NCBI RefSeq assembly: GCF_035920345.1 | Contig: NZ_CP109149.1 | Span: 2,604,001 to 2,668,000, forward strand | From: Nocardia vinacea | Lineage (GTDB): Bacteria; Actinomycetota; Actinomycetes; Mycobacteriales; Mycobacteriaceae | Length of the DNA stretch: 64,000 bases | Direction of reading: 5' to 3' | Shown here: positions 15,301 to 48,629 of the stretch, piece after piece | Position numbering within the stretch: position 1 is the stretch's first letter | How the letters are laid out: every line of letters begins with the position of its first letter | Program-made: the position numbers and the translations under genes | The notes under the pieces: model-generated | Database searches by the model: none | What the model was told of the DNA's origin: nothing | Seen by the model: the letters and a program-made list of their open reading frames with translations, nothing else

Positions 15301-15564
15301 CCCGGACATCGGCGTGGCGAGCGCGCCGAAGCCGGCCATTCGGTTACGCGGCAGCAATGCCGCGTCCGCCTGTCGGAGCGACCGAGAAATCGACCAGTCG
15401 AGGGCAAGCGACCGAGCGGGATACCGATGACCTCGGTGAACGCCCTGGCCCGAGACGACGCTTCAACGATGCGAGGAAAACCCAACATGCCGAGCACACG
15501 ACCTTGCTACCATTTAGCAAACATCGCGTAGCGGGCGCCCTGCGACTTGGAGAGGCGTATTGCA

Positions 15565-16536
15565 ATGATTCCCACATGGTGTCGATGGGCCGGGGCGGTG
15601 GCCATATTGGCTGCGGCGACCACGGCATGTTCATCGGATAACGACGGAAAGCCGGCGTCGCAGGGGACAACAAGCGCCGCGACTACGAGCAAGGTGGCGG
15701 ACACCGGAAAGTTCGTGCCCAAGTACGAGCGTGCGATGGCTTCGGACCTTGCCAAAGAAGGCAAGGACGCCATTCAAGACAACAAGGTCCTCGAAGAGCT
15801 CACCGATGCCCTCGGGACGATGTACAAGCTACCCAAGGACATTCCCGTCATCGCCAAGGAATGTGGCGAGTTCAACGCGTACTGGGACCCGAAGAACCAG
15901 TCGCTGATCCTCTGTTACGAGATGTTCGCGGTCGCCGAGAGATACGCGAAGATGCAGGCTGCCGATCCTGCGAATGCGAATTCTATGGGAACTACTGACA
16001 TTTTCAACCTTTACTTCGACGGCGTAACTCGCATGATCACCTTCCACGAGTCCGCACACATGGCGATCAACCTGTATTCGCTCCCCGCGACAGGACGTGA
16101 AGAGGACTCCGCGGACCAGCTCGGCGCCCTGGTCCTATTGACCATCCCCGGTCCCCTCGGTGCCGGTAGCGTGGCCGCGGCGGCCGACTTCTGGTTCGCC
16201 GTCTCCGATGATCCGGCAAGTCTCGATGCGCGCACCTTCGCCGACGAACACTCGCTGAGTCAGGTACGCGCCTACAACCTGGAGTGCTGGACCTACGGCT
16301 CCAACCCCAACGTGCTGGACGTGCTTGTGAACAAACCGGGTGAGCCAGAGAAGAAAGGGTTCCTGCCATATCAGCGTGCTGCGGGGTGTCCCGATGAGTA
16401 CAACCGAATGAAGGCCGCGTGGGAGACCCTTTTGAAGCCCTATATCGAGACCAGTCTCGGCGCACCCGCCAGCAATACCCCGAGTGCGACACCTTCTTCG
16501 ACTACCCAAACGCATTCCACCACCCCTACGCGCTAG
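15565..16536 (+). CDS. DUF4344-type metallopeptidase-like lipoprotein
   Basis: A 323-residue exported lipoprotein. The signal is MIPTWCRWAGAVAILAAATT with the lipid cysteine at about residue 22 (TTACSS), followed by a Ser/Thr linker. The body matches the DUF4344 putative metallopeptidase pattern. CGEFNAYWDPKNQSLILCYE precedes the zinc-type motif HESAH (His161, Glu162, His165). GREEDSADQLGALVLL, with its third-ligand Glu/Asp, comes next, then CWTYGSNP and AAGCPDEY. A Ser/Thr/Pro-rich tail closes it. The ATG at 15565 has GGAGAGG ten bases upstream, whereas an earlier in-frame TTG lies on the ribosome site itself. Codon use is visibly less GC-rich than around it, hinting at separate ancestry. 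Confidence 0.82.
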   Translation: MIPTWCRWAGAVAILAAATTACSSDNDGKPASQGTTSAATTSKVADTGKFVPKYERAMASDLAKEGKDAIQDNKVLEELTDALGTMYKLPKDIPVIAKECGEFNAYWDPKNQSLILCYEMFAVAERYAKMQAADPANANSMGTTDIFNLYFDGVTRMITFHESAHMAINLYSLPATGREEDSADQLGALVLLTIPGPLGAGSVAAAADFWFAVSDDPASLDARTFADEHSLSQVRAYNLECWTYGSNPNVLDVLVNKPGEPEKKGFLPYQRAAGCPDEYNRMKAAWETLLKPYIETSLGAPASNTPSATPSSTTQTHSTTPTR

Positions 16537-16773
16537 GCGAGTCGTCGTCCCGCTGTCTCTACGACAACGGATGCTGTTGACGTCGCAGGCGGCCACAGCG
16601 TTCACCTTCGGGGCGAATGCCCGCCTCCAAGGGTGTGGGTTTGCTCCACCTCAGGTGTCTATTTCCTGCCGTCGTATGCCCGGACCATAGATCACGAGCC
16701 ATTGGTACCGGGAAGTCCAGACGTGGATTGGTCCCATCCACAATTCGACGACAGACACCCATGGAGGCAAAAA

Positions 16774-17571
16774 TTGTCACAGGAAAACCCATTCGACGAC
16801 ATCATGAACCAGCTTGGCGGAGCCCCGAGTTGCGGTGGCGCCACGACGGATCCGCAGGATATGACGGCACAGCTGAGCCAGGGATTCGACGACATCATGA
16901 ATCAGCTGGGCGGGATTCCCGGTCTCGAACAGCCGCAGGGGCCGATTGAAATTCCCGGCCTCGAGCTGCCGGTCGACCAGCAACCGGTGGATCAGCAGCA
17001 ACCACCTGTGGATCAGCAACAGCCTGTCGACCAGCAGGCACCTGCCGACCAGCAAGCACCCGTCGACCAGCAAGCACCCGTCGACCAGCAAGCACCCGTC
17101 GACCAGCAAGCACCCGTCGACCAGCAAGCACCCGTCGACCAGCAAGCACCCGTCGACCAGCAAGCACCCGTCGACCAGCAAGCACCCGTCGACCAGCAAG
17201 CACCCGTCGACCAGCAAGCACCCGTCGACCAGCAAGCACCCGTCGACCAGCAACCGATCGACCTGCAGTTCCCCATGGACCAGCAGGCACCTGCCGATCA
17301 GCAACAGCCCATCGACCAGCAACAGCCCGTCGATCAGCAGGCACCCGTCGATCAGCAGGCACCCGCCGACCAACAGCCGCCCATGGACCAGCAACCGATC
17401 GACGAGCAGCCGATCGACGAGATGTCCATGGACGACGGCCTGCCGCCCGATGACGTCTACAACACGGATTCCAACGGCCTCGGCATGGGCGCTGGGACGG
17501 AAGACATGTTTTCCGAAGGGCCCTTGGCCGATATCGGTGACACCATCGCCGACTCCATGGACATGTTCTGA
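16774..17571 (+). CDS. VDQQAP-repeat acidic protein in the iniB position
   Basis: A 265-residue protein starting at TTG 16774, chosen because GGAGG lies six bases upstream. An upstream ATG frame lacks support. The N-terminus holds two copies of FDDIMNQLGG (about residues 6 and 37). The middle, about residues 67-215, is Pro/Gln/Asp-rich tandem VDQQAP hexapeptides, ten of them encoded by perfect 18-base repeats. The C-terminus is acidic and Met-rich (DEQPIDEMSMDDG, DTIADSMDMF). There is no signal peptide or membrane span. It is probably extended or disordered, able to bind many copies of a partner. It ends two bases before the IniA-like gene. Mycobacterial iniB is also low complexity and precedes iniA, but no sequence homology is evident. 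Confidence 0.72.
   Translation: MSQENPFDDIMNQLGGAPSCGGATTDPQDMTAQLSQGFDDIMNQLGGIPGLEQPQGPIEIPGLELPVDQQPVDQQQPPVDQQQPVDQQAPADQQAPVDQQAPVDQQAPVDQQAPVDQQAPVDQQAPVDQQAPVDQQAPVDQQAPVDQQAPVDQQAPVDQQPIDLQFPMDQQAPADQQQPIDQQQPVDQQAPVDQQAPADQQPPMDQQPIDEQPIDEMSMDDGLPPDDVYNTDSNGLGMGAGTEDMFSEGPLADIGDTIADSMDMF
17062..17253 (+). repeat. Perfect 18-base in-frame tandem repeat
   Basis: GTCGACCAGCAAGCACCC is repeated ten times without a mismatch, with an eleventh partial copy (12 bases) ending at 17253. Each unit encodes VDQQAP, and degenerate copies continue on both sides (about 16970-17400). Since 18 is a multiple of three, copy-number changes would lengthen or shorten the protein without breaking it. Confidence 0.95.
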
Positions 17572-17573
17572 GC

Positions 17574-19415
17574 ATGCGACCCGATCAACTACCGACAGGT
17601 GGATCGGCCGCGGCCGTCCCGCCCCTGTTCGATTGGTTGATCCGGCTCGCACAGTCGGCGGACCGGGAAGACCTGCTCGGCACCCTCCAATCCGTGCGAC
17701 GCCGATCCGCCGACGCTGCCATGCGGGTCGCCGTTGTCGGATTGCGCCAGCAGGGCAAAAGCCAGCTGATCAATGCCCTGCTGAACGAGCAGGTCTGCGT
17801 AGTCGGTGACCGTCGAGCCACCTCGGTGGTCACCGTCGTCCGGCACGCGGACGAACCGGTCGCGAAGCTGGTGGTCGAGCTGCCGGACGCCGAAACTCCC
17901 GTCGCGGCTGCACTGCCATTCGGTGAGTTGCAATCCGAGCTGGCGAAGTCCGCGCACGCGCGCGGCGGCCAGGTGGTGTGCGCTGAGGTCGGCATCGATA
18001 CCGCGACGCTGCCGAAAGGTCTGGCCCTCATCGACACCCCGGGGGTCGGTGGCATCGGCCAGCGGCATGTCCCGCGAGTATTGAACGAGGTGGCGCTGGC
18101 GGACGCCGTCATCATCGTCACCGATGCCAGCCAGGAGTTCACCGAACCCGAATTTCGGTTCGTGCAGCAGGTGATCGGTCTGTGCCCCACGGCCGTCATC
18201 GCGTTGACCAAGGTCGACATCTACCCCGAATGGCGCCGAATCGCGGACGCCGACCGGCGCCACCTCGCCGATGCCGGAGTCGGCTGCCGAATCATTCCGG
18301 TTTCGTCGATGCTGCGCGGCCACGCGGTACGCCTGCGCGACAAGGAACTCAATGCCGAATCCGGCTATCCCGACCTGCTCGCGTTCCTGCGCACCGAGGG
18401 TCTCGCCGACATCGCAACCAAACGGCGCATCCGCATAGCGCGGGATATCGAGTCCGTCGCACACCATCTGACCGTGCCGTTCGAGGCGGAATTGAATGCG
18501 TTGCGGGACCCAGGGTTCCAGCAGCGAATGGCCGAGGAGTTGAAGACGCGCAAGGACATCTCGGACGCGCAGGTGAAGTCGGCACGGTCGTGGCAGCAGG
18601 TATTGAACGACGGTGTCGCGGACCTCAATTCCGAGATCGACCATGACCTTCGGGAACGGCTGCGGAGCATCAACAAGCACATCGAGTCCGAGCTCGAGGA
18701 CGGCGACCCGGACAAGAAATGGCCGGTGCTGACCGAGTGGGTGCAGGAAGAGGTGAGCGCTGCGGTCGCCGACAATTTCGTCTGGGCGTACCAGTCCGCT
18801 CAGGCACTGGCCGAGCGGGTGGCGGCATCGTTTGCCGTGGACGGCAACGGCGTTGATCTCCCCGTGCTCGAGGCCATCTGCGAAGGTGACCTGATCGACC
18901 GACGGCTGCAGATCGGTGATCTGCGCGATATGAAGGTTTCGCTGGCGGACAAGGGCCTGACCGCGGTTCGCAGTGGCTACAGCGGCGCGATGATGATCGG
19001 TATGGGCGCCACCATGGTCGGCGCGGCGATGATGAACCCGATCACGATCGGAGCCGGGGTGGTGATCGGTGTGAAGGCCTACCAGCAGGACCGCGCGGGA
19101 CGACTGGCCCGCCGCCGCAACGTCGCTCAGCTCACGCTCCGAAAGTACGTCGACGACGTATCCTTCCAGGTGCACAAGCTCTCCCGTGACCGCCTCCGGA
19201 ATGTGCAGCGGGAGTTGCGCGATCACTTCAAGGAATCTGCCGAGCAAGCCTTGGCGTCACTGCAGAGTTCGTTGAAGGCAGCACAGGACGCAGCAGGCAT
19301 GGAGCGCGTGGTGCGGGAAAAGCGTGCGGCCGAGGTCGAGCAGAATTTGACCGCGCTGGCCAGGGTTCGCGAAGGCGCTACCCGGCTGCGGACCGTGCAG
19401 TCGCAGCGAACCTAG
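17574..19415 (+). CDS. iniA: IniA-like bacterial dynamin GTPase
   Basis: A 613-residue dynamin-family GTPase. P-loop GLRQQGKS lies at residues 56-63, the switch threonine in RATSVVT, DTPGVGG starts at 154, and the guanine-specificity motif TKVD is at 212-215. Long helical stalk segments follow, with DNFVWAYQSAQALAERVAASF and VDDVSFQVHKLSRDRLRNVQRELRDHF, both highly diagnostic of mycobacterial IniA. A Gly/Met-rich hydrophobic stretch near 465-500 (SGAMMIGMGATMVGAAMMNP) is the membrane-inserting paddle. IniA is induced by isoniazid and ethambutol in M. tuberculosis and reshapes or fuses membranes. The gene starts two bases after the repeat-protein stop. A strong hairpin follows its stop. Confidence 0.92.
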   Translation: MRPDQLPTGGSAAAVPPLFDWLIRLAQSADREDLLGTLQSVRRRSADAAMRVAVVGLRQQGKSQLINALLNEQVCVVGDRRATSVVTVVRHADEPVAKLVVELPDAETPVAAALPFGELQSELAKSAHARGGQVVCAEVGIDTATLPKGLALIDTPGVGGIGQRHVPRVLNEVALADAVIIVTDASQEFTEPEFRFVQQVIGLCPTAVIALTKVDIYPEWRRIADADRRHLADAGVGCRIIPVSSMLRGHAVRLRDKELNAESGYPDLLAFLRTEGLADIATKRRIRIARDIESVAHHLTVPFEAELNALRDPGFQQRMAEELKTRKDISDAQVKSARSWQQVLNDGVADLNSEIDHDLRERLRSINKHIESELEDGDPDKKWPVLTEWVQEEVSAAVADNFVWAYQSAQALAERVAASFAVDGNGVDLPVLEAICEGDLIDRRLQIGDLRDMKVSLADKGLTAVRSGYSGAMMIGMGATMVGAAMMNPITIGAGVVIGVKAYQQDRAGRLARRRNVAQLTLRKYVDDVSFQVHKLSRDRLRNVQRELRDHFKESAEQALASLQSSLKAAQDAAGMERVVREKRAAEVEQNLTALARVREGATRLRTVQSQRT

Positions 19416-19429
19416 CCGATTCCACCTTG

Positions 19430-19467
19430 GGTGAACGAACCTCACCCCATGCGGGGTCCGGTTCACC
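19430..19467 (+). terminator. Hairpin after iniA
   Basis: GGTGAAC (19430-19436) pairs with GTTCACC (19461-19467), and between them ACCCC-ATGC-GGGGT extends the stem with small internal mismatches. It lies 14 bases after the iniA stop and 110 bases before the Hsp70-like start, with no U-tract. It may terminate or attenuate transcription into the Hsp70-like gene. Confidence 0.55.
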
Positions 19468-19523
19468 ACTTGGGGTTATGGCCGACGATCCGTCTGTGCA
19501 GGAGATTTATAACCGTAACTCCC

Positions 19524-19565
19524 CAGCAACCAGCAACCAGCAACCAGCAACCAGCAACCAGCAAC
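19524..19565 (+). repeat. Heptanucleotide microsatellite, six copies, just upstream of a start codon
   Basis: CAGCAAC is repeated six times without mismatch. The array ends one base before the GAGAGG ribosome binding site and 12 bases before the ATG of the Hsp70-like gene. A TTTATAAC promoter-like element lies just upstream (19507-19514). Seven is not a multiple of three, and the array is in the 5' leader, so copy-number change would alter promoter or leader spacing rather than the protein. Confidence 0.92.
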
Positions 19566-19577
19566 CGAGAGGTGTGC

Positions 19578-21005
19578 ATGTCCGGCAGTCTTGGCATCAA
19601 GATCGGCACGGCCGATTTCGTCACCGCAGCTGACGCGGCGTCCGGAGGTTCCGAGCGGCGCGCCCCACGTCTTCAGACGACACAGCACCAGGCGACGTTG
19701 ATCATGACCCAAGGCATGGCGCCGACGCTGTCTCCAATCGGCAGCGGTACCCGTCCGGCGCACATGGGACTGGTAGTCACCGGATTCGTGGACCGAGTCG
19801 GCGACCCGATCGATCTCGTCGCCGCCGACGGTTCCGCTCATCGGCCGGAGAAACTCGTCGCCAGCGCCGTCCAGTACCTGACGCGTTATTCGGCCGGTGC
19901 GTTCGCCGGGCCTCCCACCATCGCGGCGACATATCCCAGCTACTGGCAGCCACAGGGCGTGCAGGCGCTTCGCGAGGCGCTCGACCGGATGGACATGGCC
20001 GGTGTGGCACTCGTGGACGAGGTCGGATCGATTCTCGCCCGTGTCGAGTCGACACGAGGGCTACCTTCGGACGGCGCCGTCGTGGTGTACGACCTCGGCG
20101 GCAACGGCCTCAGCGTCTCGGTGGCCCGCGGTACCGAACAGATCGGCAGAACGGTCCGGAGCGCGGAATTCGGTGGCAAGCACATCGATGACGCCATCTT
20201 GCGGCACGTTCTCCGAGGCCTGGCTGGAGAACTCGGAGACATCGATCTCGCGGCCCCCGCTTTACTGGCGCCACTGAACGAACTGCGGCTGCGCTGCCGT
20301 CAGGCCAAGGAGACGCTTTCCATCGAAACTGCCTCGGTGATCGAGGTGGAGCTGGGACCTGTGCGTCACGATGTGCGACTTGTCCGCTCCGAGCTCGAGG
20401 ATCTGATCAGAGAGCAGGTTGTCGAGTCCGCCGGACTTGTCCGAGAAGCTCTGCGCACCAACGAAATCGATGCCGGCGACGTGCGAGCAGTAGTGCTGGC
20501 CGGTGCGGCGTCGGCGACCCCGCTCGTGGCCGAGGTGTTGTCCACAGAGTTGCACGTACCGGTGATAGCGGAACCCGATCCCGGCCTCACATCCGCGAAT
20601 GGCGCTGCTCTGCTGGCGCGTTCTTCGGCAAGTGTCGCCCCATCGGCGCCGGTGCCGCCGCTATCGATGCCGGCACCGACACCCGCTACCCCGCCGCAAC
20701 CTCCGGAACCGCCTCGGTCCGCCGAGCCGGTCGCGAATACGCCGCCGGTGGTCGTCGCAGCCGCGAATCCGGTGGCGCCGGAATCAACAGGAGGTGGCAA
20801 AAAGGTCGGCAGTCGACGTCGTAAACAAGCACTTCTCGCCGCTGCGGCCATTGCTACGCTCGCAGCGGCGATTGTCGGAATTGTCGCGCACAGCACGCCG
20901 AAGACCGAGCCGCAGCCCACGGTAACCGAGCAAGTTACCGACACACCTTCACCTGCCGCGACAACCACCACGCAACTCCCCTACCCCACCAGGCCTGTTT
21001 CATAA
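19578..21005 (+). CDS. Membrane-anchored Hsp70-fold (actin-like) ATPase
   Basis: A 475-residue protein with a degenerate Hsp70/actin-type ATPase domain (residues 1-340). The phosphate-1 motif is GIKIGTADFV, the phosphate-2 motif VVYDLGGNGLSVSV, EFGGKHIDDAIL follows, and the adenosine motif is VRAVVLAGAASATPLV. There is no substrate-binding domain of the DnaK type. A Pro/Ala-rich linker (about 345-405), a KKVGSRRRK stop-transfer patch, one transmembrane helix (QALLAAAAIATLAAAIVGIV) and a short Pro/Thr-rich outer tail follow instead. The start at 19578 has GAGAGG five bases upstream, and a longer upstream frame runs through the microsatellite. It sits between iniA and convergent iniC. Coupling nucleotide state to the dynamins or the envelope is inference. 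Confidence 0.82.
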   Translation: MSGSLGIKIGTADFVTAADAASGGSERRAPRLQTTQHQATLIMTQGMAPTLSPIGSGTRPAHMGLVVTGFVDRVGDPIDLVAADGSAHRPEKLVASAVQYLTRYSAGAFAGPPTIAATYPSYWQPQGVQALREALDRMDMAGVALVDEVGSILARVESTRGLPSDGAVVVYDLGGNGLSVSVARGTEQIGRTVRSAEFGGKHIDDAILRHVLRGLAGELGDIDLAAPALLAPLNELRLRCRQAKETLSIETASVIEVELGPVRHDVRLVRSELEDLIREQVVESAGLVREALRTNEIDAGDVRAVVLAGAASATPLVAEVLSTELHVPVIAEPDPGLTSANGAALLARSSASVAPSAPVPPLSMPAPTPATPPQPPEPPRSAEPVANTPPVVVAAANPVAPESTGGGKKVGSRRRKQALLAAAAIATLAAAIVGIVAHSTPKTEPQPTVTEQVTDTPSPAATTTTQLPYPTRPVS

Positions 21006-21011
21006 GCAGTC

Positions 21012-22490
21012 CTATCGAACACCCCGCCGCAACTCGCTCAGCACGCCTTCGGCGCTGCGGGCCGCCACAATGCAGGCATTGGCGGTGAACTGATCCGCGA
21101 GCGGGTGTTCGGCCCGGGATCGCCATCGTCTGATTTCCGCCAATGCGACGTCCTGGCCCACGCCCGCGACCGCGAACGGTTCGATTCCCAAGCGTTCGGC
21201 CGGTCCCGTCCCGTGACCGCCGATCACCCGTTGCAGATCGGTGAGTTCGTGCTCGGACAACACCGTCTCGGTCGAGCGGAGCCGACTCAGGAGTCGGAGT
21301 TCTTCGAAGCCGTGCACATTCGCGAGCAGTGTCGCGACTTCCTGGCCGAGCGGTACGGCCTGCGGGGCCGGGTCGGCGGCGAATATCTGCCGCAGCATCA
21401 GCAGCGCGGTATGTGCCTTCAATTCGTCCGCCCGCTGGCCGAACTGAATGTCGATGACGCGCTCGAGTTCACCGATACCGCTGCGTGCGATCAATTCGTC
21501 GACCAGAGCCGCCGAATCGCTGGTTCCGGACCGTAGTCGAGTCAGTGCCATGCCGATTCCGAATAGCCCCAGACGTCTGACGAGGTGCTGTCGCGCCGCG
21601 GAATCAATCGGCAGATAGTCGGCTCGCTGGAATCGGTCGGCCGAGAGCATGGCCAATTCCAGGTCGGCCGGTGCGACCGTGGCAAGCCGGCGAAGGCCCA
21701 CGAACTCGCTCTGTCGAAGAGTTTTCGCGGTAAAGGCGAGCAAACCTGCAACCGGTACGGCCGCCTGGCACAGGCCCGTCGTTTCCAATTCGCGCGTGAA
21801 GTCTTTGGCGGCCGCGCGGGCGGAGTGCATTGCGTCCGGACGGCCCGCACCGAGTTCGTCTGCCCGTGAGAGGACGCCGACGATTCCGAGCGGACCGGCG
21901 TTGCCGCCGACGTGCTCGCCGATCTGACGAATCAGTGCGAGGTCGGAATCGTCGAGCGCACGAAACAGATAGACCACCGCATCGGCTCCGGCGGAGCCGG
22001 TGTCCGGAGTCAGCAATCGCAGTGTGCGCGCGGACACATCCCTCGACAGTGACGTGGTTCCGGGGGTGTCGATGATCGTGGTGCGCGCGAGGCGGGGCAC
22101 CGGCCAGTCGACGTCGATTCGATCGACCTGCGCGGCCACGAGCTTCCCGAGGTCGAACGTCAGACCACCGTCGGCTCGCTGTATCGGTACATACTCAGCC
22201 CGGCCGCTCGCGAGCCGAGCGATGACCGTCGGCGTGGCACCGTGCCGGTACCAGGTCACGACGCGGGTGCATTCGGTGGCGTCGGTGGGGGCGATATCTT
22301 GGCCGACCAGTGCGTTGAGCAGTGTCGACTTTCCGGCCTTGACGGCACCGGCCAATGCGATGCGCAGCGGTTCGTGCAGCCGTCGCGCGCCCTCTTCGAG
22401 GCGATCGGTAGCGGCGCGGTTACCGAAGTAAACGCGATGGGCGGCCTCGATGATTCTGTCGACCCTGGCGATCGGCGCTGCCGTGTTCAT
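21012..22490 (-). CDS. iniC: IniC-like bacterial dynamin GTPase
   Basis: A 492-residue dynamin-like GTPase close to mycobacterial IniC. EPLRIALAG with P-loop GAVKAGKS (48-55) is followed by GQDIAPTDATECTRVVTWYR, then DTPGTTS from 141 and SRAD at 208-211 as guanine motif, with Ser for the usual Thr as in IniC. The later FTRELETTGLCQAAVPVAGL, ERVIDIQFGQRADELKAHTAL and VIGGHGTGPAERLG stretches are typical of that family. IniC lacks the large membrane paddle of IniA and is thought to be its partner. Unlike the mycobacterial iniBAC operon, this gene faces iniA and the Hsp70-like gene, its stop six bases from the latter's, so it has its own promoter in the 264-base gap before 22755. Confidence 0.92.
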   Translation of the reverse strand: MNTAAPIARVDRIIEAAHRVYFGNRAATDRLEEGARRLHEPLRIALAGAVKAGKSTLLNALVGQDIAPTDATECTRVVTWYRHGATPTVIARLASGRAEYVPIQRADGGLTFDLGKLVAAQVDRIDVDWPVPRLARTTIIDTPGTTSLSRDVSARTLRLLTPDTGSAGADAVVYLFRALDDSDLALIRQIGEHVGGNAGPLGIVGVLSRADELGAGRPDAMHSARAAAKDFTRELETTGLCQAAVPVAGLLAFTAKTLRQSEFVGLRRLATVAPADLELAMLSADRFQRADYLPIDSAARQHLVRRLGLFGIGMALTRLRSGTSDSAALVDELIARSGIGELERVIDIQFGQRADELKAHTALLMLRQIFAADPAPQAVPLGQEVATLLANVHGFEELRLLSRLRSTETVLSEHELTDLQRVIGGHGTGPAERLGIEPFAVAGVGQDVALAEIRRWRSRAEHPLADQFTANACIVAARSAEGVLSELRRGVR

Positions 22491-23003: not shown

Positions 23004-23036
23004 CCGGATAGTTGCAGCTCAGCGATTGGATTGGAC

Positions 23037-23699
23037 ATGTTCAAGAAGCTCGCGAGGGCTGCGGCTGTGCTCGCAGCATGCGCAGCGCCGGCCGGGGTGC
23101 AAGTAGGCACTGCGCATGCCATAGACCCGTCTGTTCTGGGCGGTGGTTCCGGCATTATCGTCAACGACCAAGGCGTCTGCACGCTCACCACGATCGGGCA
23201 CGATGCTGCGGGTCGGCTGGTCGGGCTCACCGCGGGTCATTGCGGTGAGGCGGGTACCACGGTCGTTGCCGACGCCAACCGTGACGCCGGTGTTGTGGGC
23301 ACCTTCGCCTACGCGAACAACGATATGGACTACGCCGTCATCGTGTTCGATCCGGACAAGGTCGTACCCGTGAATCGCGTGGGTAATACGACGATTACCG
23401 GATTGGGCGGTCCGGCGCAGTTCCCGGACGTCGCGTGCAAGGAAGGCTATACCACGGGCCAGACCTGTGGACTGGCCTACGGAGATGTGTTCCAGACCGA
23501 CACCTGGACCTGGACGCAGATATGCGTCCTTCCCGGTGACTCCGGCGGACCGGTCGTGGTCGGCACAACGCTCGTCGGCATGGTGAACGGATACCTGAGG
23601 GTGCCGTGCCTGGGACCGCAGCTCGGCGCGAATATTGCCGCCATCATGGGCGACGTCGACGCGCGCGGTGATATCGGAGCGGGTTTCCGCCCGATCTAG
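23037..23699 (+). CDS. Secreted trypsin-like serine protease
   Basis: A 220-residue exported peptidase of the chymotrypsin fold. The signal peptide spans about 1-28 (FKKLARAAAVLAACAAPAGV to GTAHA), and no long propeptide is obvious. The catalytic triad is His68 in LTAGHCG, Asp98 in DMDYAVI and Ser169 in GDSGGP. Cysteine pairs flank the His and Ser loops. Its compactness and the CTLTTIGHD opening resemble actinobacterial S1 peptidases of the alpha-lytic/streptogrisin type. The first ATG (23037) is taken as the start; a TTG two codons earlier is possible. A neighbouring small secreted protein upstream may be its partner or substrate. Confidence 0.88.
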   Translation: MFKKLARAAAVLAACAAPAGVQVGTAHAIDPSVLGGGSGIIVNDQGVCTLTTIGHDAAGRLVGLTAGHCGEAGTTVVADANRDAGVVGTFAYANNDMDYAVIVFDPDKVVPVNRVGNTTITGLGGPAQFPDVACKEGYTTGQTCGLAYGDVFQTDTWTWTQICVLPGDSGGPVVVGTTLVGMVNGYLRVPCLGPQLGANIAAIMGDVDARGDIGAGFRPI

Positions 23700-23728
23700 C
23701 TGCGTCACCGCACATTCCAGCCGAAGTC

Positions 23729-24418
23729 CTACCGCCCGTGGTGATTGACGACCACGCCGCTGTCGAGTGCGCGCTCAACTAGAAACACGCGTTTTTTGTT
23801 CTGCGGGAAGGATTCGACGTCGAATATTTTGAACAGCGCCCGCATGTGAGTCTTCACCGTGGCGACGCTCAGGCAGAGATCGTCTGCAATCTGCCAGTTC
23901 GATGCGGGGTAGGTGAACCCGGTCTCAGCGTCGTACGGGCGACATAGTGCCTCGAGAATCAGATACTGAGCGTCGGTCAGCGCAGTACGGGCCGGGAGAC
24001 CGGTCTGGGCAATTGTTCGTTCATCCTCGGATGGGTGGCCGTCGGTGAAGATGAATACCGACTTCCCGAGCCGAATCGAATCGCCGGACTCGAGTTTGCG
24101 ATACCCGCCGATGCGCTCGCCGTTGACGAAGGTCCCGTTTGTCGACAGCCCATTATCGATGACGACCCAGCAGTCGCTCACCCGCTTGATTATGGCGTGC
24201 AGGCGCGAGACGGTCGCGTCGGTCACGGTGATATCGGCCGCCTCCGACCGCCCGATTGTCATACTGTGCGTGTCGCGGTCGAGTGAAATCTCGCGCCGAA
24301 TTCCGTAGCCGCTCCGGTGGGAAAGAGTGCCACCACCGGCTGACTGTTGCCGCGCATGTTCGCCTGCGTCCGGGTAGGGGTCGTGACGCAGGGCCTGTTG
24401 TCCGTATGACGTGGACAT
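23729..24418 (-). CDS. FHA-domain protein with C-terminal winged-helix domain
   Basis: A 229-residue cytosolic regulator. Residues about 35-125 form a forkhead-associated domain that reads phosphothreonine: TIGRSEAADI, VSRLHAII, DNGLSTNGTFVNG. Residues about 140-225 resemble a winged or LuxR-like helix-turn-helix, with LTDAQYLILEALCRPY and NWQIADDLCLSVATVKTHMRALF. The combination suggests a DNA-binding protein switched by Ser/Thr kinase signalling, and the window carries two such kinases further right, though not adjacent. A CTGAT/ATCAG dyad (24462-24478) lies about 44 bases upstream of the start and could be its own operator. It is convergent with the protease gene, 29 bases apart. Confidence 0.85.
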   Translation of the reverse strand: MSTSYGQQALRHDPYPDAGEHARQQSAGGGTLSHRSGYGIRREISLDRDTHSMTIGRSEAADITVTDATVSRLHAIIKRVSDCWVVIDNGLSTNGTFVNGERIGGYRKLESGDSIRLGKSVFIFTDGHPSEDERTIAQTGLPARTALTDAQYLILEALCRPYDAETGFTYPASNWQIADDLCLSVATVKTHMRALFKIFDVESFPQNKKRVFLVERALDSGVVVNHHGR

Positions 24419-29733: not shown

Positions 29734-29963
29734 CTCGGGGGCGGTTCCAGTTCAGGGTGTGACGCCGTGGACTCGACCGCAGACACAGACAGCGTACTGA
29801 TGGATGAGATCAGGGCTCGCAGCGAGATTGCGACCAGGTCGACGTCCGCGATGGCCAGCCTGACGTCGCCGGAGATGACTACGCCGCCGGCCAGCACTCG
29901 GTCCAACAAATCGACGAGTGCGACCCGGCGCTCGCCGTCGACGCTCTGGTCGGCGGGTTTCAT
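29730..29963 (-). CDS. gvpS: GvpA/GvpJ-family minor structural protein (GvpS-like)
   Basis: A 77-residue member of the GvpA/J family. VALVDLLDRVLAGGVVISGDVRLAIADVDLVAISLRALISSI is the conserved amphipathic shell-forming core. The C-terminus is short, SHPELEPPPR. Start ATG 29963 overlaps the gvpL stop (ATGA). A longer frame exists but would sit inside gvpL. By position (L-S-K) it corresponds to Streptomyces gvpS. It is probably a minor, cap-associated subunit rather than the main rib protein. Confidence 0.85.
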   Translation of the reverse strand: MKPADQSVDGERRVALVDLLDRVLAGGVVISGDVRLAIADVDLVAISLRALISSISTLSVSAVESTASHPELEPPPR

Positions 29964-30754
29964 ATCGGCTCCTGATCCACGCCGGCGAACGAATACGGCG
30001 GCCACGGACCGGTGATTTCGAGCCGGATGCCGGGCAATTCCTTGCCGAGTTCGTTCACGGTCGCGGCGAAGTCAGCGGCGTGGTCGTCATCGACCAGATA
30101 GGTGCCGTTGAGCACCATCCAGTCGCGGCGGCCGCTCAGCGCCGGATCCGTCGCCGCTTGACGACGTCCCGCGGCGGCCTGGCGAACCAAGCGCGCATGT
30201 ACCGCCTCGGCCCGTTCTGCCGCGTCGCGTTCCACGGTTTCCTGTGCGGACAGTTCCGCGCGGCGACGGGCCAGATAGGCCGTGCCCGTACCCTTTCCGC
30301 TCCCCGTGCTCGCGGCCCTGGCATCGGCCACTGCGGCGGTGAGGGTGGCACGGTCGGTATAGGCTTTCACGCCCCACTCGGTGCGGCCGGTCACCAGCGT
30401 CAGCGCTGCGATGAAGTCCGCACGCCTCGTATCGAGCAGCTCGCGCACCCGCTCGTCGTCGAGAAAGACCGTGGCCAGGCGTAGCGGGACGGTCGGGCCG
30501 CGGCGCACCAGCGCTGACACCACGGCGTCGTGCGCCCGTGCCGTCGCCGCCAGCCAGTCCAGATCCTCCAAGTTCCGCCGTAGTGGCTGCTCCCCGAATA
30601 CCTCGAGCGGCACCGATCCGACGAACGCCGCCAGCGCATCCGAGACCACCGCGCGTACCGGCTCGCCCGCGACGCCGGTGACCGAGCCCGATCCCGCCGC
30701 GGCGTCCGTGGCCCGGGTGACCGCGTACAACCAGACGCCGACCTGTTCAGTCAC
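29960..30754 (-). CDS. gvpL: Gas vesicle protein GvpL/GvpF family (second copy)
   Basis: A 264-residue two-domain GvpL/F protein. It starts VGVWLYAVTRA, has PLEVFGEQPLRRNLEDLDWLAATARAHDAVVSALVRRGPTVPLRLATVF (the diagnostic central strand) and a coiled-coil-like Arg/Ala-rich segment (LARRRAELSAQETVERDAAERAEAVHARLVR). The second ferredoxin-like domain starts MVLNGTYLVDDD and ends ITGPWPPYSF, the family's closing motif. Proteins of this family bind GvpA and act in vesicle assembly. It overlaps gvpJ by eight bases upstream and gvpS by four downstream. Confidence 0.93.
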   Translation of the reverse strand: MTEQVGVWLYAVTRATDAAAGSGSVTGVAGEPVRAVVSDALAAFVGSVPLEVFGEQPLRRNLEDLDWLAATARAHDAVVSALVRRGPTVPLRLATVFLDDERVRELLDTRRADFIAALTLVTGRTEWGVKAYTDRATLTAAVADARAASTGSGKGTGTAYLARRRAELSAQETVERDAAERAEAVHARLVRQAAAGRRQAATDPALSGRRDWMVLNGTYLVDDDHAADFAATVNELGKELPGIRLEITGPWPPYSFAGVDQEPI

Positions 30755-31139
30755 GGTCCTTCGATTCCTCGGGTTCGCGGCGGCGTTCGATGGATTGGTG
30801 GCGCTTGCCTGCGGCCTCGAGTTCGGCGATTCGGTCGCGCAGTTCCCGGTTCTCGAGTTCGAGGTCGTGATCCTGCCGCTCGAGCGTGTGGGCCTTGCTG
30901 TTGAGCCAGGGGTCGGTCTCCCACCAGTCGATGCCGACCGCCTTGGCCGTCTCCAAGGACGCGATGACCAGTCGCAGCTTGATCGTGAGCAGTTCGATGT
31001 CGAGCAGATTCACCTGGATGTCCCCCGCGATCACCAAGCCCTTGTCGAGCACCCGTTCGAGGATGTCGGCGAGATTCGTCGATTGATGTCCGCCGCCGTA
31101 CGGCTGCGGTGCCGAGGACTCGCCTCCGACCACCGTCAT
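30747..31139 (-). CDS. gvpJ: GvpJ: GvpA-family minor structural protein with charged tail
   Basis: A 130-residue protein of the GvpA/J family. The core LADILERVLDKGLVIAGDIQVNLLDIELLTIKLRLVIASLETAK matches the shell-protein fold. WWETDPWL and a charged, coiled-coil-like tail (HTLERQDHDLELENRELRDRIAELEAAGKR) follow, typical of actinobacterial GvpJ and absent from GvpA. It probably nucleates or caps the vesicle. Start ATG 31139 overlaps the gvpO stop by four bases, and the stop overlaps gvpL by eight. Confidence 0.9.
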   Translation of the reverse strand: MTVVGGESSAPQPYGGGHQSTNLADILERVLDKGLVIAGDIQVNLLDIELLTIKLRLVIASLETAKAVGIDWWETDPWLNSKAHTLERQDHDLELENRELRDRIAELEAAGKRHQSIERRREPEESKDRD

Positions 31140-31471
31140 GGTCGAGCTCTTCCACCGATATCGGTGCTACCGCGGTAGTAGCGCCTGGTTCTGCGGTAGG
31201 CCAGCAGATTTCCGTCCAAATCGAGCTCGAGCTCGTAGAGCGCCAGCATGTCCCCCGATGAGGGGATGCGGCGATCCTCGAGCACCTCCATCTCTACCAG
31301 CCATCCGTCCTCGATCGGCTCCATGGAGGTGACGCCCTCCACGTGCTTCGAGGTCAGTTCCACCAGGATCTCGATTGCCGCGGCCGAGGCCTGTGCCGCG
31401 GTGATGGGAGGCGGTTCGTCCGGCACCGCGTCGACATCCTCGGGGTTTTCCGGAGTGGTCATGCGTGCCAC
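31136..31471 (-). CDS. gvpO: Gas vesicle protein GvpO
   Basis: About 111 residues. An acidic Pro-rich N-terminus (EDVDAVPDEPPPIT) is followed by the GvpO core: AAIEILVELTSKHVEGVTSMEPIEDGWLVEMEVLEDRRIPSSGDMLALYELELDLDGNLLAYRRTRRYYRG. GvpO is essential or regulatory for vesicle formation in haloarchaea and is conserved in actinobacterial clusters. GTG 31471 is preferred because AAGGAG lies eight bases before it. ATG 31462 and GTG 31480 are alternatives. It sits between gvpG and gvpJ, whereas in Streptomyces gvpO leads the cluster. Confidence 0.88.
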   Translation of the reverse strand: MARMTTPENPEDVDAVPDEPPPITAAQASAAAIEILVELTSKHVEGVTSMEPIEDGWLVEMEVLEDRRIPSSGDMLALYELELDLDGNLLAYRRTRRYYRGSTDIGGRARP

Positions 31472-31476
31472 GCGAG

Positions 31477-31734
31477 TCACTCCTTCCGTTTAGTCGCCGT
31501 CGTGTCGTCCGAGGACGGGAGTGTGCGATCGAGGACGGCTTGCTGCGCTTGCTTCCGCTCTTCTTCGGACAGGCGACCGGCCGCGGCGGCCTCATCGATC
31601 TCCTCGAGTTCGCGCCGCACTGCCGCGGGACTTTGTAGCTGCTGCTCTACCTGGTCCTGGATCAGTTCGCCCAGCCAGATCACGCCGCGCACCGGTGCGA
31701 GGGGCAACGACAAGATCGCTGAGACCAGACCCAT
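31477..31734 (-). CDS. gvpG: Gas vesicle protein GvpG
   Basis: An 85-residue helical protein with the GvpG pattern. A hydrophobic, amphipathic front, MGLVSAILSLPLAPVRGVIWLGELIQDQVEQQ, is followed by LEEIDEAAAAGRLSEEERKQAQQAVLDRTL. GvpG works as an assembly accessory alongside GvpF/L. Its start is three bases after the gvpF stop. The gvpO ribosome binding site (AAGGAG) overlaps its last codons. Confidence 0.92.
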   Translation of the reverse strand: MGLVSAILSLPLAPVRGVIWLGELIQDQVEQQLQSPAAVRRELEEIDEAAAAGRLSEEERKQAQQAVLDRTLPSSDDTTATKRKE

Positions 31735-31737
31735 GGT

Positions 31738-32496
31738 TCAGCTCTCGGGTGCCTGCTTGGTCACGAAGTCGTAGGCTGCCATCGGTCCGAGCAGGGTCAG
31801 TTCGACCCGGTCGTCCCAGTCCCTGGCGAGCCGGCGCAACACATCCTCCAGATCGCCTTGCCGACTCGTGTCGACCAGAACCGCGACGTGCACGGCGTCC
31901 TCCTCGTGGGTGGGCTGGCGTTGGTTGACGAGCGGGTCGAACTCCTCGAGTTCGGAAATCACCCTGCGGGTGTCCTCGGCGCGTTTGGCTTCGATCGCCT
32001 GGTTGATCATTTCGCCCAGTGCGATCCGGGCATCGCGGGTGGCGTCTTCGGGTTTGTCGTGGATCTCCTCGCGCAGCCGGGCGACTTCGGCGTTCTCGTC
32101 GACGAGTTCACGCAGGACGGCATTCTCGACGTAGCGCCCCTTGATCACGAACTGCGCACGCCCCTCCAGTTCCTCCAGCGCGGCACGGAATTCGTCCTCG
32201 TGTTCCCCGAGCAGCTCGTTCCCCACCGCCTCCGCATCGGTCATCACCGCGCCGAAGCGCAGCGGCAGCACCGGAACCACGGCCGCCGACTCGTCCAGCA
32301 GCTTGGCGTGTGCGGCGAGATCATCGGGATCGCCGAGCCGGCGATCGGTGGCGACGTCACTGACCAGCGCGGCGATCTCGCCGTGTCGCACCACTGCGAC
32401 ATCGCCGGGGGGATCGCCGACACCACTGGCATGCGGCTGCGGCTCCACATCGGCAGGGACGATTCCGTAGACGTACAGGGCGTGGCCGGTAGCCAT
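31738..32496 (-). CDS. gvpF: Gas vesicle protein GvpF
   Basis: A 252-residue GvpL/F-family protein. It starts HALYVYGIVPADVE, has AAHAKLLDESAAVVPVLPLRFGAVM in the first domain, and FVIKGRYVENAVLRELVDENAEVARLREEI as a helical middle. The second domain (HVAVLVDTSRQGDLEDVLRRLARDW) closes with ELTLLGPMAAYDFV. GvpF is found at the gas-facing surface and contacts GvpA during assembly. The start is the TAATG overlap with the gvpA stop, with GGGAGG upstream. The pairing of gvpF and gvpL in one operon matches other actinobacterial clusters. Confidence 0.94.
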   Translation of the reverse strand: MATGHALYVYGIVPADVEPQPHASGVGDPPGDVAVVRHGEIAALVSDVATDRRLGDPDDLAAHAKLLDESAAVVPVLPLRFGAVMTDAEAVGNELLGEHEDEFRAALEELEGRAQFVIKGRYVENAVLRELVDENAEVARLREEIHDKPEDATRDARIALGEMINQAIEAKRAEDTRRVISELEEFDPLVNQRQPTHEEDAVHVAVLVDTSRQGDLEDVLRRLARDWDDRVELTLLGPMAAYDFVTKQAPES

Positions 32497-32900
32497 TATT
32501 CCTCCCTGCGCCGCGAAGACCGGGGTGCTGTTTGGCGCTTGTCCTCGACGTCGTCGAGGAAGCTCTTGACCTTCTCGCCCGCCGCCTCGAGCGCACCCTT
32601 GGTCTTGTGCTTGCTCGCACCCTCGGTGACGTCGCCGACGATATCGGTCAAGCCCTTGGGTTCACTGGTGGAAATTTCGAGCCGATTGACGGCCTCGGCA
32701 AAGCGTAGATACGTGTCGACGCTGGCCACGACGACGCGGGCGTCGACGGTCACCAGTTCGATGCCGACCAACGACACGCGCGCGAACGCGTCGATAACCA
32801 GTCCTTTGTCGAGAATCGTGTCTACAACGTCGGCCAGGCTGGAGGAATTCGGGCGCGCCATTGTGCCGGTTCCGCCACCGCCTGCGGGTTCGATGGTCAT
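32496..32900 (-). CDS. gvpA: Gas vesicle main structural protein GvpA
   Basis: A 134-residue GvpA. The core [57 protein letters not shown] is the canonical rib-forming subunit. It is longer than cyanobacterial GvpA (about 70 residues), with a 13-residue front and a charged C-terminal extension ([24 protein letters not shown]), as in other actinobacteria. Start ATG 32900 has AGGAG ten bases upstream and overlaps the SRPBCC gene stop by four bases. It is the only clear GvpA; gvpJ and gvpS are minor relatives. Confidence 0.94.
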
Positions 32901-34063
32901 GTTCGTGCTCTCCTCTCGCTCGACCGGCGGGCCGCTGTGGTGCGGCGCTGCGAGCCCGATCGACGGCGGGGCCGCGCGGGTGCGGTCTGCTCGTCCTCGT
33001 CTTGCTCGTCCTCGTCGTACTCGTCGGACTCGCCTTTCGGTTCCTCTTCGTCGGACTCGTCTTTCGGTTCCTCTTCGTCTCGATCTTCTTCGTCCGCAGT
33101 TTCGGCCTCGGCGTTCTCCTGTTCCTCGCGCCGTGCGGTCTCGTCGTCCTTGACGACTTTGCTGTCGTGGATCTCGCCGTGCCAGCCCACGATGTCGTCG
33201 GGGTGCAGCACAGCCTCGGTCATGACGTGCCGCTCGAATTGCTTGAGCTCCAAGCGGCATCGGCGACCGGCCGCGCGCCACAGGTTGGCTGTCTTCTCGA
33301 AGACGCCGTTGGGCTGGTACTCGAGCACCACGAGGATGCGGGTGAGATCCGGTGTGATCTCGTGAAAACTCACCGCGCCGTCGATGTAGCCCTTGGCGCC
33401 TGAAGAACGCCAGACGATTCGCTCGAAAGGCACCTGCTCGAGGATCGTGGATTTCCAAGTCCGCCTTGACCAGAACACCTTGCCGGTCCAGGTGAGTTTC
33501 TCGTCGGCGACCTGCTCGACCTGCTCGACCTTCTTGGTGAACTTCGGAAATTCGGCGAACTGGGTCCACTGGTCATAGGCGAGGTCGATCGGAACGCCGA
33601 GATCGAGCTGCTCGACGATATTGGTCGGTTTGCGCTTCTTGCCGCCCCCCTTGCCCTTACCGCCGGTCATGGACTCCTTGACCGTTTCGAAGTTGTCGCG
33701 GACGGAGTGCTTCAGCCTGTCCATGCCCGCACTCATCGCCGCTTGCAACGGCGTGGCGCCTTGGCTGAGTTTTTCCACTCCGGTTATCGCCGAAAGTAGA
33801 TTTCCCCCACCGTCTTCAGCGTATTGATTCAGCCGGTCCGCGGTCTTCGATACCGTGCCCGAGAGCCCGGAGGCTGCGCGTGCAGCCAGGGTTGCGGTGA
33901 GATTCTGCACCGATTGCTGCAGGGGGCTGGCCGGAATGGCTTGTTGGGTCTTCTTCTGGATGGTCGACCCCGCCCCGGTCGCGGCTTTGGTGGCCCGGCC
34001 CGCGGAGGCGGCGGCCTTCTTGCCGACTCCGGCCGTCGTATCACGCAATGTCTTGGCCGCCAT
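32897..34063 (-). CDS. Gas vesicle operon SRPBCC-domain protein with acidic and basic tails
   Basis: A 388-residue protein. An Ala/Lys/Thr-rich N-terminal region of about 120 residues is followed by a START/SRPBCC (polyketide-cyclase-like) domain: [67 protein letters not shown], and [21 protein letters not shown]. The tail is first strongly acidic ([17 protein letters not shown]) and then Arg-rich ([22 protein letters not shown]). Such genes recur in Streptomyces-type gas vesicle clusters as gvpY/gvpZ-like accessories, but I cannot assign the letter. Start ATG 34063 is chosen over 34072 for GAGGAG nine bases upstream. Confidence 0.82.
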
Positions 34064-34068
34064 CGGCC

Positions 34069-34713
34069 TCATCTCCTCGTGCGTCGCACGGGCGCTTCGT
34101 CGGCGTCATCGGTATCGACGCGACTACGGCGTCGGCGGGTCGAGGGTGCCTTACGCTCGGCGGAGCCGGGCGCACGATCCGAGGTCCGGGAGCCCGTCCT
34201 ACGCACCGCCGTACGCGTCCGGCGCGGCCGCGGCCGCGCGCTGGTCCGCTCGTCGTCCTCGTCGTCCTCGTCCTCGTCGTCCTCGTCCTCGTCCTCGTCT
34301 TCGTCGTCCTCGGCCGGTTCTTCTTCGGCGGGTTCGTCCTCGGGCAGTTCGTCCTCGGGCAGTTCGTCTTCGTCGGAATCCGGCTCCCGCGAATCGCCCC
34401 GGTCCTCCTGCGGATCGGGCATCGCACGCTGCTGCAACCGGGCGTTGAGCGCGTCGATGCGGTGGCTGGCGGCGGTGACCGCGGCGGACCGCACAGCGCC
34501 TATCAATTCACCCTTGACGGTATCAGTGATCTGAGTCAGCTCCGGCGACGATCTGAGCAACGATGTCCCCCGCTCGAGCAGATCCGCAGGCGTTCCCTCC
34601 GACCGCCTTGCCATCGCCGCACCCGCCAGCGCCAACGCCAACCGCATCTTGCGCGTGCGCCCCAGCACGTACCCGATGCCCACCCCTATGGCAATTCTTA
34701 CTCCACCTTTCAC
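34069..34713 (-). CDS. Gas vesicle operon leader gene: anchored protein with polyacidic and polybasic tail
   Basis: A 214-residue protein. A short glycine-rich hydrophobic N-terminus (VRIAIGVGIGYVLGRTRKMRLALALAGAAMA) resembles YtxH-like anchors. A helical region (LTQITDTVKGELIGAVRSAAVTAASHRIDALNARLQQ) follows, then about 45 mostly Asp/Glu residues and an Arg-rich end. The same acid-then-base tail arrangement appears in the SRPBCC protein encoded five bases downstream, suggesting the two bind one another or a common partner. It is the first gene of the ten-gene operon, so the promoter should lie in the 177-base gap before 34891, where a CCCCA-GAG-TGGGG hairpin is visible (34782-34794). Confidence 0.75.
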   Translation of the reverse strand: MKGGVRIAIGVGIGYVLGRTRKMRLALALAGAAMARRSEGTPADLLERGTSLLRSSPELTQITDTVKGELIGAVRSAAVTAASHRIDALNARLQQRAMPDPQEDRGDSREPDSDEDELPEDELPEDEPAEEEPAEDDEDEDEDEDDEDEDDEDDERTSARPRPRRTRTAVRRTGSRTSDRAPGSAERKAPSTRRRRSRVDTDDADEAPVRRTRR

Positions 34714-48311: not shown

Positions 48312-48629
48312 TCACGAAGTCGCTTGCCGGCTTTGATCCACGATCCAGGCAGCGATCTGCGCGCGGGAGGTGAATCCGAGTTTGCTCAGGATGTGTTCGA
48401 CATGCCCGTCCGCGGTGCGTTGCGAGATCACCAGTTTCGCCGCGATCTGCTTATTGGTGAGTCCTTGGGCCACAAGGTCTGCGACCTGCTGCTCGCGTTT
48501 GGTCAATGCCAGTTCCGAAGCTCGCGGGCCGGCGGTTGTCGGCTCCCCCAGCGCGTAGGCGACTGCGGCGTTTATTCCCATGGATTGGCCGCGCCGGAAT
48601 GCCGCATCGAATCCTCGGTTGCCGAGCAC
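48312..48629 (-). pseudogene. LuxR-type DNA-binding end of the frameshifted kinase regulator
   Basis: This frame carries a GerE/LuxR helix-turn-helix, LTKREQQVADLVAQGLTNKQIAAKLVISQRTADGHVEHILSKLGFTSRAQIAAWI, which normally ends kinase- or cyclase-ATPase-TPR regulators. Its own start (GTG 48629) has no ribosome binding site. Upstream, the frame continues as FPELFRFHDECERTARRVLGNRG, the linker that should follow the TPR region of the large gene. The two frames join if one T is added, or slipped on, in a run of five T at 48683-48679 of the coding strand. It is therefore the detached 3' end of that gene, not an independent regulator. Confidence 0.7.

What the first reader, a model, noticed from the sequence alone, without database searches (positions are those of the whole stretch)
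16774..22490. A variant ini locus: repeat protein, IniA dynamin, membrane Hsp70-fold ATPase, convergent IniC dynamin
IniA and IniC similarity is clear from several long diagnostic segments. The mycobacterial order is iniB-iniA-iniC in one operon. Here iniC is flipped, a membrane-anchored Hsp70/actin-fold ATPase sits between, and iniB is replaced by a VDQQAP-repeat protein. Two dynamins, an ATPase switch and a multivalent disordered protein together look like a stress-responsive membrane-remodelling machine that has not been described in this form.
Basis: partly seen in the sequence, partly recalled or inferred. Interest (0 to 1): 0.78.

Follow-up and report, generated by a model that had tools for sequence, protein, structure and literature searches.

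The report
Second ini dynamin locus in Nocardia
A Nocardia bacterium carries, besides its standard ini membrane-remodelling gene set, a second rearranged one in which two dynamin-like proteins sit with a membrane-spanning, probably non-hydrolysing relative of the chaperone Hsp70 and a highly acidic repeat protein, and relatives of that Hsp70 turn out to be frequent neighbours of the standard gene set in this bacterial family.

Summary
The four genes are real: a TTG-started VDQQAP-repeat gene (16774-17571), an IniA dynamin (17574-19415), a membrane Hsp70-fold protein (19578-21005) and a convergent IniC (21012-22490). The window holds a second, diverged ini-type locus (ini2). Its IniA orthologue occurs in 6 of 148 Nocardia genomes; all 6 keep the gene order, and iniA2, hsp70 and iniC2 show purifying selection. 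The Hsp70 link is general: 65 of 79 canonical-type IniA genes in a family sample have a relative of this Hsp70 nearby, all 65 on the opposite strand. The 'ATPase switch' is doubtful: Asp8 and Lys70 of DnaK are replaced in 52 of 52 relatives. Best reading: a dynamin pair with a membrane-anchored pseudo-Hsp70 partner and an acidic scaffold, under its own promoter. New variant of a known kind. In 8 literature searches and passages of 4 papers I saw one sentence on such a gene: dnaK-like, beside iniR in M. smegmatis.

The parts
16606..16773 (+). leader / promoter region upstream of the repeat gene, partly well conserved
   Evidence: 98-100% identical in the two 50-base blocks 16647-16746 to N. anaemiae (neighbouring blocks 80-94%) and to G134 (where neighbouring blocks are 92-98%, so less telling); a 68% match also precedes the N. 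lijiangensis gene; no Rfam match; folding z -1.1 to -1.9
16774..17571 (+). VDQQAP-repeat acidic protein, 265 aa, TTG start with GGAGG upstream, no Lys or Arg
   Evidence: C-terminal tail and FDDIMNQLGG-type motif kept in relatives; no IniB_NTERM match
16996..17394 (+). tandem array of an 18-base unit, 22.3 copies; the protein has 13 exact VDQQAP
17574..19415 (+). iniA2, dynamin-like GTPase, 613 aa, starts 2 bases after the repeat gene's stop
19416..19577 (+). iniA2-hsp70 intergenic stretch with a 28-base block invariant in 5 sequences and a (CCAGCAA)6.3 array at 19523-19566, not seen in the 5 relatives' sequences
19578..21005 (+). membrane-anchored Hsp70-like protein, 475 aa: nucleotide-binding fold 1-352, Pro-rich linker, one predicted transmembrane helix, 39-residue outer tail (topology inferred)
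20829..20885 (+). predicted transmembrane helix of the Hsp70-like protein (residues 418-436)
   Evidence: highest 19-residue hydropathy 2.55; helix 414-432 in the model, at low confidence
21012..22490 (-). iniC2, dynamin-like GTPase, 492 aa, convergent, 6 bases between the two genes' stop codons

Best explanation
This is a second, anciently diverged ini-type dynamin locus (ini2). IniA2 and IniC2 act as a pair of GTP-driven membrane-remodelling proteins on the inner face of the plasma membrane (inferred from the solved and tested IniA of M. smegmatis). The Hsp70-like protein is a single-pass membrane protein whose cytosolic part keeps the Hsp70 nucleotide-binding fold but has lost residues needed for hydrolysis; I propose that it binds nucleotide without cycling and works as anchor, assembly platform or envelope sensor for the dynamins, not as a chaperone. 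The acidic, Lys/Arg-free repeat protein takes the place of IniB as a length-variable scaffold or cell-envelope filler. The locus is driven from its own leader and lacks the palindrome of canonical Nocardia ini promoters. Shown: gene identities, order, conservation, selection, the replaced residues, the general Hsp70-ini linkage. Inferred: the function of each part, the membrane topology and the physical partnership.
For: IniA identity. Orthologues in 6 of 148 Nocardia genomes with the same gene order and purifying selection. IniA2 forms its own clade, 100/100, with unnamed database proteins and one Rhodococcus sp., apart from 17 canonical Nocardia IniA; the quick Hsp70 tree groups the window clade in a roughly similar way. 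Hsp70 near canonical-type iniA: 65 of 79, all on the opposite strand; co-occurrence table 69/4/10/68, Fisher p=1.1e-26. No iniR-like match is in the window, yet Hsp70 stays with the dynamins. Catalytic positions replaced. Lys+Arg 0 of 265 in the repeat protein and 1 of 1144 in the canonical IniB of the genome.
Against: No expression or interaction data. R488, whose mutation abolished membrane binding in M. smegmatis IniA (PMC6715688, passages), is Val here, so lipid binding may differ. The Hsp70 distribution could reflect the iniR-like gene and not the dynamins. 14 of 79 canonical-type iniA have no Hsp70 hit nearby, 10 of these none in the genome at the threshold. The Fisher test ignores relatedness. 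Thr199 is replaced by Ser in 13 of 52 and a PDB title (1ats) says the matching Thr204 of Hsc70 is not essential for hydrolysis; Asp201 is kept in 17 of 52.
Confidence: 0.55

Rival explanations
1. The Hsp70-like protein is the membrane sensor of the regulator IniR: its outer tail senses the envelope and it passes a signal to the trehalose-responsive ATPase IniR; in ini2 it is a leftover or a decoy.
For: In the canonical loci hsp70 lies next to the iniR-like gene on the same strand; IniR is the dedicated iniBAC activator in M. marinum and M. tuberculosis (PMC5760070, passages).
Against: The window has no iniR-like match and no canonical palindrome, yet its hsp70 is under purifying selection and stays between iniA2 and iniC2 in 6 of 6 genomes. 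An IniR acting in trans on ini2 is not excluded.
Confidence: 0.25
2. A working Hsp70-type chaperone that folds or disassembles the dynamins by ATP cycling.
For: Hsp70 nucleotide-binding fold with high model confidence; Glu171, Asp194 and the adenine-site Gly are kept in 50, 52 and 52 of 52.
Against: Asp8 and Lys70 replaced in 52 of 52, Thr199 in 51 of 52; no substrate-binding domain found.
Confidence: 0.1
3. ini2 is a decaying or neutral extra locus without function.
For: Patchy: 6 of 148 Nocardia genomes; the repeat array varies strongly.
Against: dN/dS 0.12-0.32 in iniA2, hsp70 and iniC2, no internal stops in the frames compared, order kept.
Confidence: 0.05

Closest known systems
iniBAC operon with iniR of mycobacteria (PMC5760070, passages read)
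   Same: IniA and IniC dynamins beside a low-complexity protein; M. [quoted passage not shown]
   Different: iniC flipped, hsp70 between the dynamins, no iniR-like match in the window, no IniB N-terminal domain, no canonical Nocardia promoter palindrome; lies in a genome that also has a canonical locus
IniA of M. smegmatis (6j72/6j73, PMC6715688)
   Same: match over residues 17-606, G-domain motifs kept
   Different: R488 of the lipid-interacting loop is Val, K489 kept (the paper's numbering matched to the chain by an offset of 2)
DnaK/Hsp70
   Same: nucleotide-binding domain fold
   Different: no substrate-binding domain found, catalytic residues replaced, a hydrophobic helix and outer tail
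Canonical ini cluster of the same genome (L017)
   Same: IniA, IniC, membrane Hsp70, a protein nearly free of Lys and Arg
   Different: 41%, 57% and 39% identity for IniA, IniC and Hsp70; order and orientation differ; it has an iniR-like gene and IniB

Membership tests
IniA (bacterial dynamin-like) | near full-length homology to a tested IniA | tested here: met
   6j72, residues 17-606, E=1.8e-142
IniA (bacterial dynamin-like) | P-loop GxxxxGKS, DTPG, TKxD motifs | tested here: met
   GLRQQGKS, DTPG, TKVD seen in the alignments
IniA (bacterial dynamin-like) | basic lipid-interacting loop (R488, K489) | tested here: inconclusive
   Val at R488, Lys at K489; two canonical Nocardia IniA have Gly-Lys
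IniC | best match to canonical IniC, not IniA | tested here: met
   57% over 7-487 to the canonical IniC of the genome, 31-36% over parts to IniA
IniB | IniB N-terminal domain NF038175 | tested here: not met
   no match for the window protein (scanned from 16633) or for relatives L024 and L025; the canonical IniB scores 62.6 against cut-off 40
Hsp70 chaperone | Hsp70 nucleotide-binding fold | tested here: met
Hsp70 chaperone | catalytic Asp8, Lys70, Thr199 | tested here: not met
   K, V, G in the window; replaced in 52, 52 and 51 of 52 relatives, 13 of the 51 being Thr to Ser
Hsp70 chaperone | substrate-binding domain | tested here: not met
   Pfam match covers profile 102-372 of 599; after residue 352 the model has one helix only and low confidence
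iniBAC operon | iniB-iniA-iniC co-directional with iniR nearby | tested here: not met
   iniC convergent; no iniR-like match in the window at E<=1e-3
iniBAC operon | induction by cell-wall antibiotics | not testable with these tools
   needs expression data

The most novel reading that the evidence does not exclude
A degenerate, membrane-spanning Hsp70 is a core and overlooked component of ini dynamin systems across the family: a non-hydrolysing nucleotide-sensing anchor that couples the envelope to dynamin-driven membrane remodelling. The ini2 locus shows the minimal set (acidic repeat protein, IniA, pseudo-Hsp70, IniC), able to work without a linked IniR and without an IniB domain.
Probability: 0.4. 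Interest if true: 0.7.

Novelty: new variant of a known kind. Interest (0 to 1): 0.52.

Why it matters
How ini dynamins are recruited and controlled is open: the fission activity of IniA alone is described as relatively low, with help from IniC suggested (PMC6715688, passages). A conserved membrane partner with a pseudo-Hsp70 domain is a direct, testable candidate. The natural ini2 variant, which keeps the Hsp70 but has no linked iniR-like gene or IniB domain, points to the dynamins rather than the regulator as its partner.

Tried and rejected
Plasmid origin: 19 plasmid records match IniA2, all under 60% identity; the only one covering at least 80% is a Nocardia farcinica record at 40.7%. Known RNA element in the leader: no Rfam match at E<=1; folding z -1.1 to -1.9 in three sequences. 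A hairpin between iniA2 and hsp70: z -2.72 in the window but -0.42 and -0.90 in two relatives and +0.64 in N. lijiangensis, so not claimed. Simple promoter and terminator scan: nothing above shuffles. Mistaking DnaK for the Hsp70 neighbour: a match inside the DnaK gene of this genome scores only E=2.0e-6 with the window Hsp70, far from the 1e-35 cut, and lies on the strand of canonical iniA. PF07142 and PF10511 hits of the repeat protein I take for low-complexity matches. Recent duplication of the canonical copy: spoken against by the tree. Relatives of the repeat protein: a search with residues 1-80 gave one protein, 174 aa, 64%.

Full report
What is there. The window is bases 2604001-2668000 of a 10.36-Mb one-contig genome. 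The four named relatives of its IniA found in genome contigs are all Nocardia, N. vinacea being closest at 96%. The four genes of the finding are confirmed. The repeat gene begins at TTG 16774, preceded by GGAGG; the nearby ATG is out of frame in the window and in G134 and in frame only in N. anaemiae, while the TTG is in frame in all three sequences compared. It encodes 265 residues with 0 Lys or Arg and 50 Asp or Glu. IniA2 starts two bases after its stop. The Hsp70-like gene begins at ATG 19578. Its stop and that of the convergent iniC2 are separated by 6 bases.

The genome has three IniA genes. One lies in a canonical cluster at 7.52 Mb (locus L017): a short Hsp70-like gene, an iniR-like gene (NF038181, 500.6 bits against a cut-off of 750, so only IniR-like) and a membrane Hsp70 on one strand, and iniB (NF038175, 62.6 against 40), iniA and iniC on the other. 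A dnaK, grpE and dnaJ set follows further on, by my reading of the translations. The third IniA (35% to the window) has neither iniC nor hsp70 next to it among the called genes; weaker Hsp70-like matches lie about 10-16 kb away. The window locus is thus an extra ini-type locus, here called ini2.

Conservation. Of 148 Nocardia genomes searched, 147 have some IniA relative at E<=1e-20, but only 6 (this one included) have an IniA2 of 78% or more; all other listed matches are at 43% or less (the match list is cut at the weak end). All 6 keep the order repeat gene, iniA2, hsp70, convergent iniC2. In N. vinacea and N. pseudovaccinii only the 3' end of the repeat gene is present, because the contig ends there. 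Pairwise dN/dS is 0.13-0.31 for iniA2 (15 pairs of 6), 0.17-0.32 for hsp70 (10 pairs of 5; N. lijiangensis left out) and 0.12-0.21 for iniC2 (15 pairs of 6). The repeat part varies: 22.3 units of 18 bases in the window against a 3.6-copy 87-base array in G134; N. lijiangensis has a 635-residue version without DQQ but with a DVMTQLG-type motif and an acidic tail. Its Hsp70 has a long Gly-rich end.

Origin. In a 45-protein tree the IniA2 proteins, four unnamed database proteins (55-58%) and one from Rhodococcus sp. NPDC058521 (50%) form one clade with 100/100 support, apart from 17 canonical Nocardia IniA; the Rhodococcus row has a long branch, so its place is less sure. The quick Hsp70 tree puts the window clade with database relatives and the same Rhodococcus in one 98% group, but that group is drawn open and also holds mycobacterial and other Nocardia Hsp70-like proteins, and long branches are flagged, so it agrees only roughly. 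For seven IniA2/Hsp70 pairs the two proteins have the same longest-contig length; only three of those contigs are under 100 kb, so this shows a shared contig and suggests, without proving, that they are close. Three of the four unnamed IniA2 relatives (P0132, P0133, P0135) have no such partner in the Hsp70 list. I could not open those contigs.

The Hsp70 link is general. Of 20 further Nocardia canonical loci that I picked by hand, mostly on long contigs, 19 show the Hsp70 at 49% or more on the strand opposite iniA, next to iniB; the twentieth (G123) has it at 56% just outside the first stretch. In 65 of the 79 the Hsp70 lies within 12 kb (within 17 kb in the one case of G123), in all 65 on the opposite strand. 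Among the 14 others, three (G152, G258, G280) have an IniA or Hsp70 hit within 2 kb of a contig start. For 19 genomes of other genera, chosen because they had the best Hsp70 hits and so not a fair sample, the neighbourhood was opened: in 19 of 19 iniA, iniC and an IniB N-terminal match were there, and an iniR-like match in 18, the nineteenth stretch ending at a contig end.

The Hsp70-like protein. The model has 263 of 475 residues at pLDDT 90 or more and an Hsp70 nucleotide-binding fold (best E=3.5e-24; TM-score by target up to 0.77 in the 50 rows shown), and nothing ordered after residue 352 but one low-confidence helix. Aligned with the DnaK of the same genome, Asp8 is replaced in 17 of 17 ini2-type and 35 of 35 canonical-type proteins, Lys70 in 52 of 52, Thr199 in 51 of 52 (13 by Ser) and Asp201 in 35 of 52, while Glu171 (50 of 52), Asp194 and the adenine-site Gly (52 of 52 each) remain. 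The role of these residues in DnaK is recalled knowledge; mutants at K71, T204 and D206 of the bovine protein are among the solved structures, and the title of one (1ats) says Thr204 is not essential for hydrolysis, so the Asp8 and Lys70 changes carry the argument. Lys70 lies in a poorly conserved stretch and its alignment is less certain than the others. In 34 canonical proteins with a full reading frame a hydrophobic stretch (highest 19-residue mean 1.86-2.52) is followed by 147-203 residues; the topology is inferred.

Regulation. GGGGN5CCCCTAA lies between hsp70 and iniB in 22 of the 24 Nocardia loci in hand and in 7 of the 19 others (my count). In the window it is absent at up to one mismatch, with 0.43 expected by chance, and the exact GGGGAAATTCCCCTAA is met only with three mismatches, at 60207. 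That it is the IniR operator is my guess. The ini2 leader is 98-100% identical at 16647-16746 in N. anaemiae and G134; in G134 the neighbouring blocks are nearly as alike.

Literature. Boot et al. (PMC5760070, passages read) state that M. [quoted passage not shown] dnaK occurs once in that text. IniA's membrane fission is from PMC6715688 (passages). Of PMC11832169 and PMC13413693 I saw passages only; Hsp70 occurs in neither, and dnaK, asked of the second alone, does not occur there. Eight searches were made, with terms on ini genes, Hsp70, dnaK-like, dynamin, Nocardia and Rhodococcus; apart from these four papers the hits were seen only as listings, for example 14 of the 18. Only open-licence papers are held, so this is not proof of absence.

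Verdict. A real, conserved, lineage-restricted variant of the ini system. The more valuable result is that its oddest part, the membrane Hsp70, is a frequent companion of ini dynamins and looks like a pseudo-enzyme.

Noticed in passing
window 29960-34713 (-): Gas vesicle gene cluster: two GvpL/GvpF, a gas-vesicle (GvpA-type) and a GvpO protein; similar translations lie near ini2 in N. anaemiae (L025 14897-18625).
   Followed up: partly
L018 6068-10160: Third IniA paralogue (35% to the window) preceded by a 735-aa Pro/Thr-rich protein and without IniC beside it; matches at about 35% are listed for many other Nocardia genomes.
   Followed up: partly
window 19523-19566: Array of 6.3 perfect CCAGCAA units just upstream of the hsp70 ribosome-binding site, not seen in the five relatives' sequences; could vary in length.
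   Followed up: no
L017 8238-8250 and other hsp70-iniB intergenic regions: Conserved GGGGAAATTCCCC-type palindrome, a candidate operator of canonical ini promoters.
   Followed up: partly
window 23031-24418: Weak trypsin-like protein and an FHA protein with a LuxR-type end, kept next to ini2 in N. vinacea, N. pseudovaccinii and N. anaemiae but not among the genes called in the G134 and N. lijiangensis stretches.
   Followed up: partly
window 15547-16536: Putative metallopeptidase (DUF4344) upstream of ini2, apparently doubled in tandem in N. anaemiae.
   Followed up: no
window 48572-51604 (-): Large protein with a Ser/Thr kinase domain, an NB-ARC-type part and TPR-like repeats.
   Followed up: no
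L033 9030-17344: Two canonical-type IniA genes near each other on one strand in genome G123, with iniC between them.
   Followed up: no
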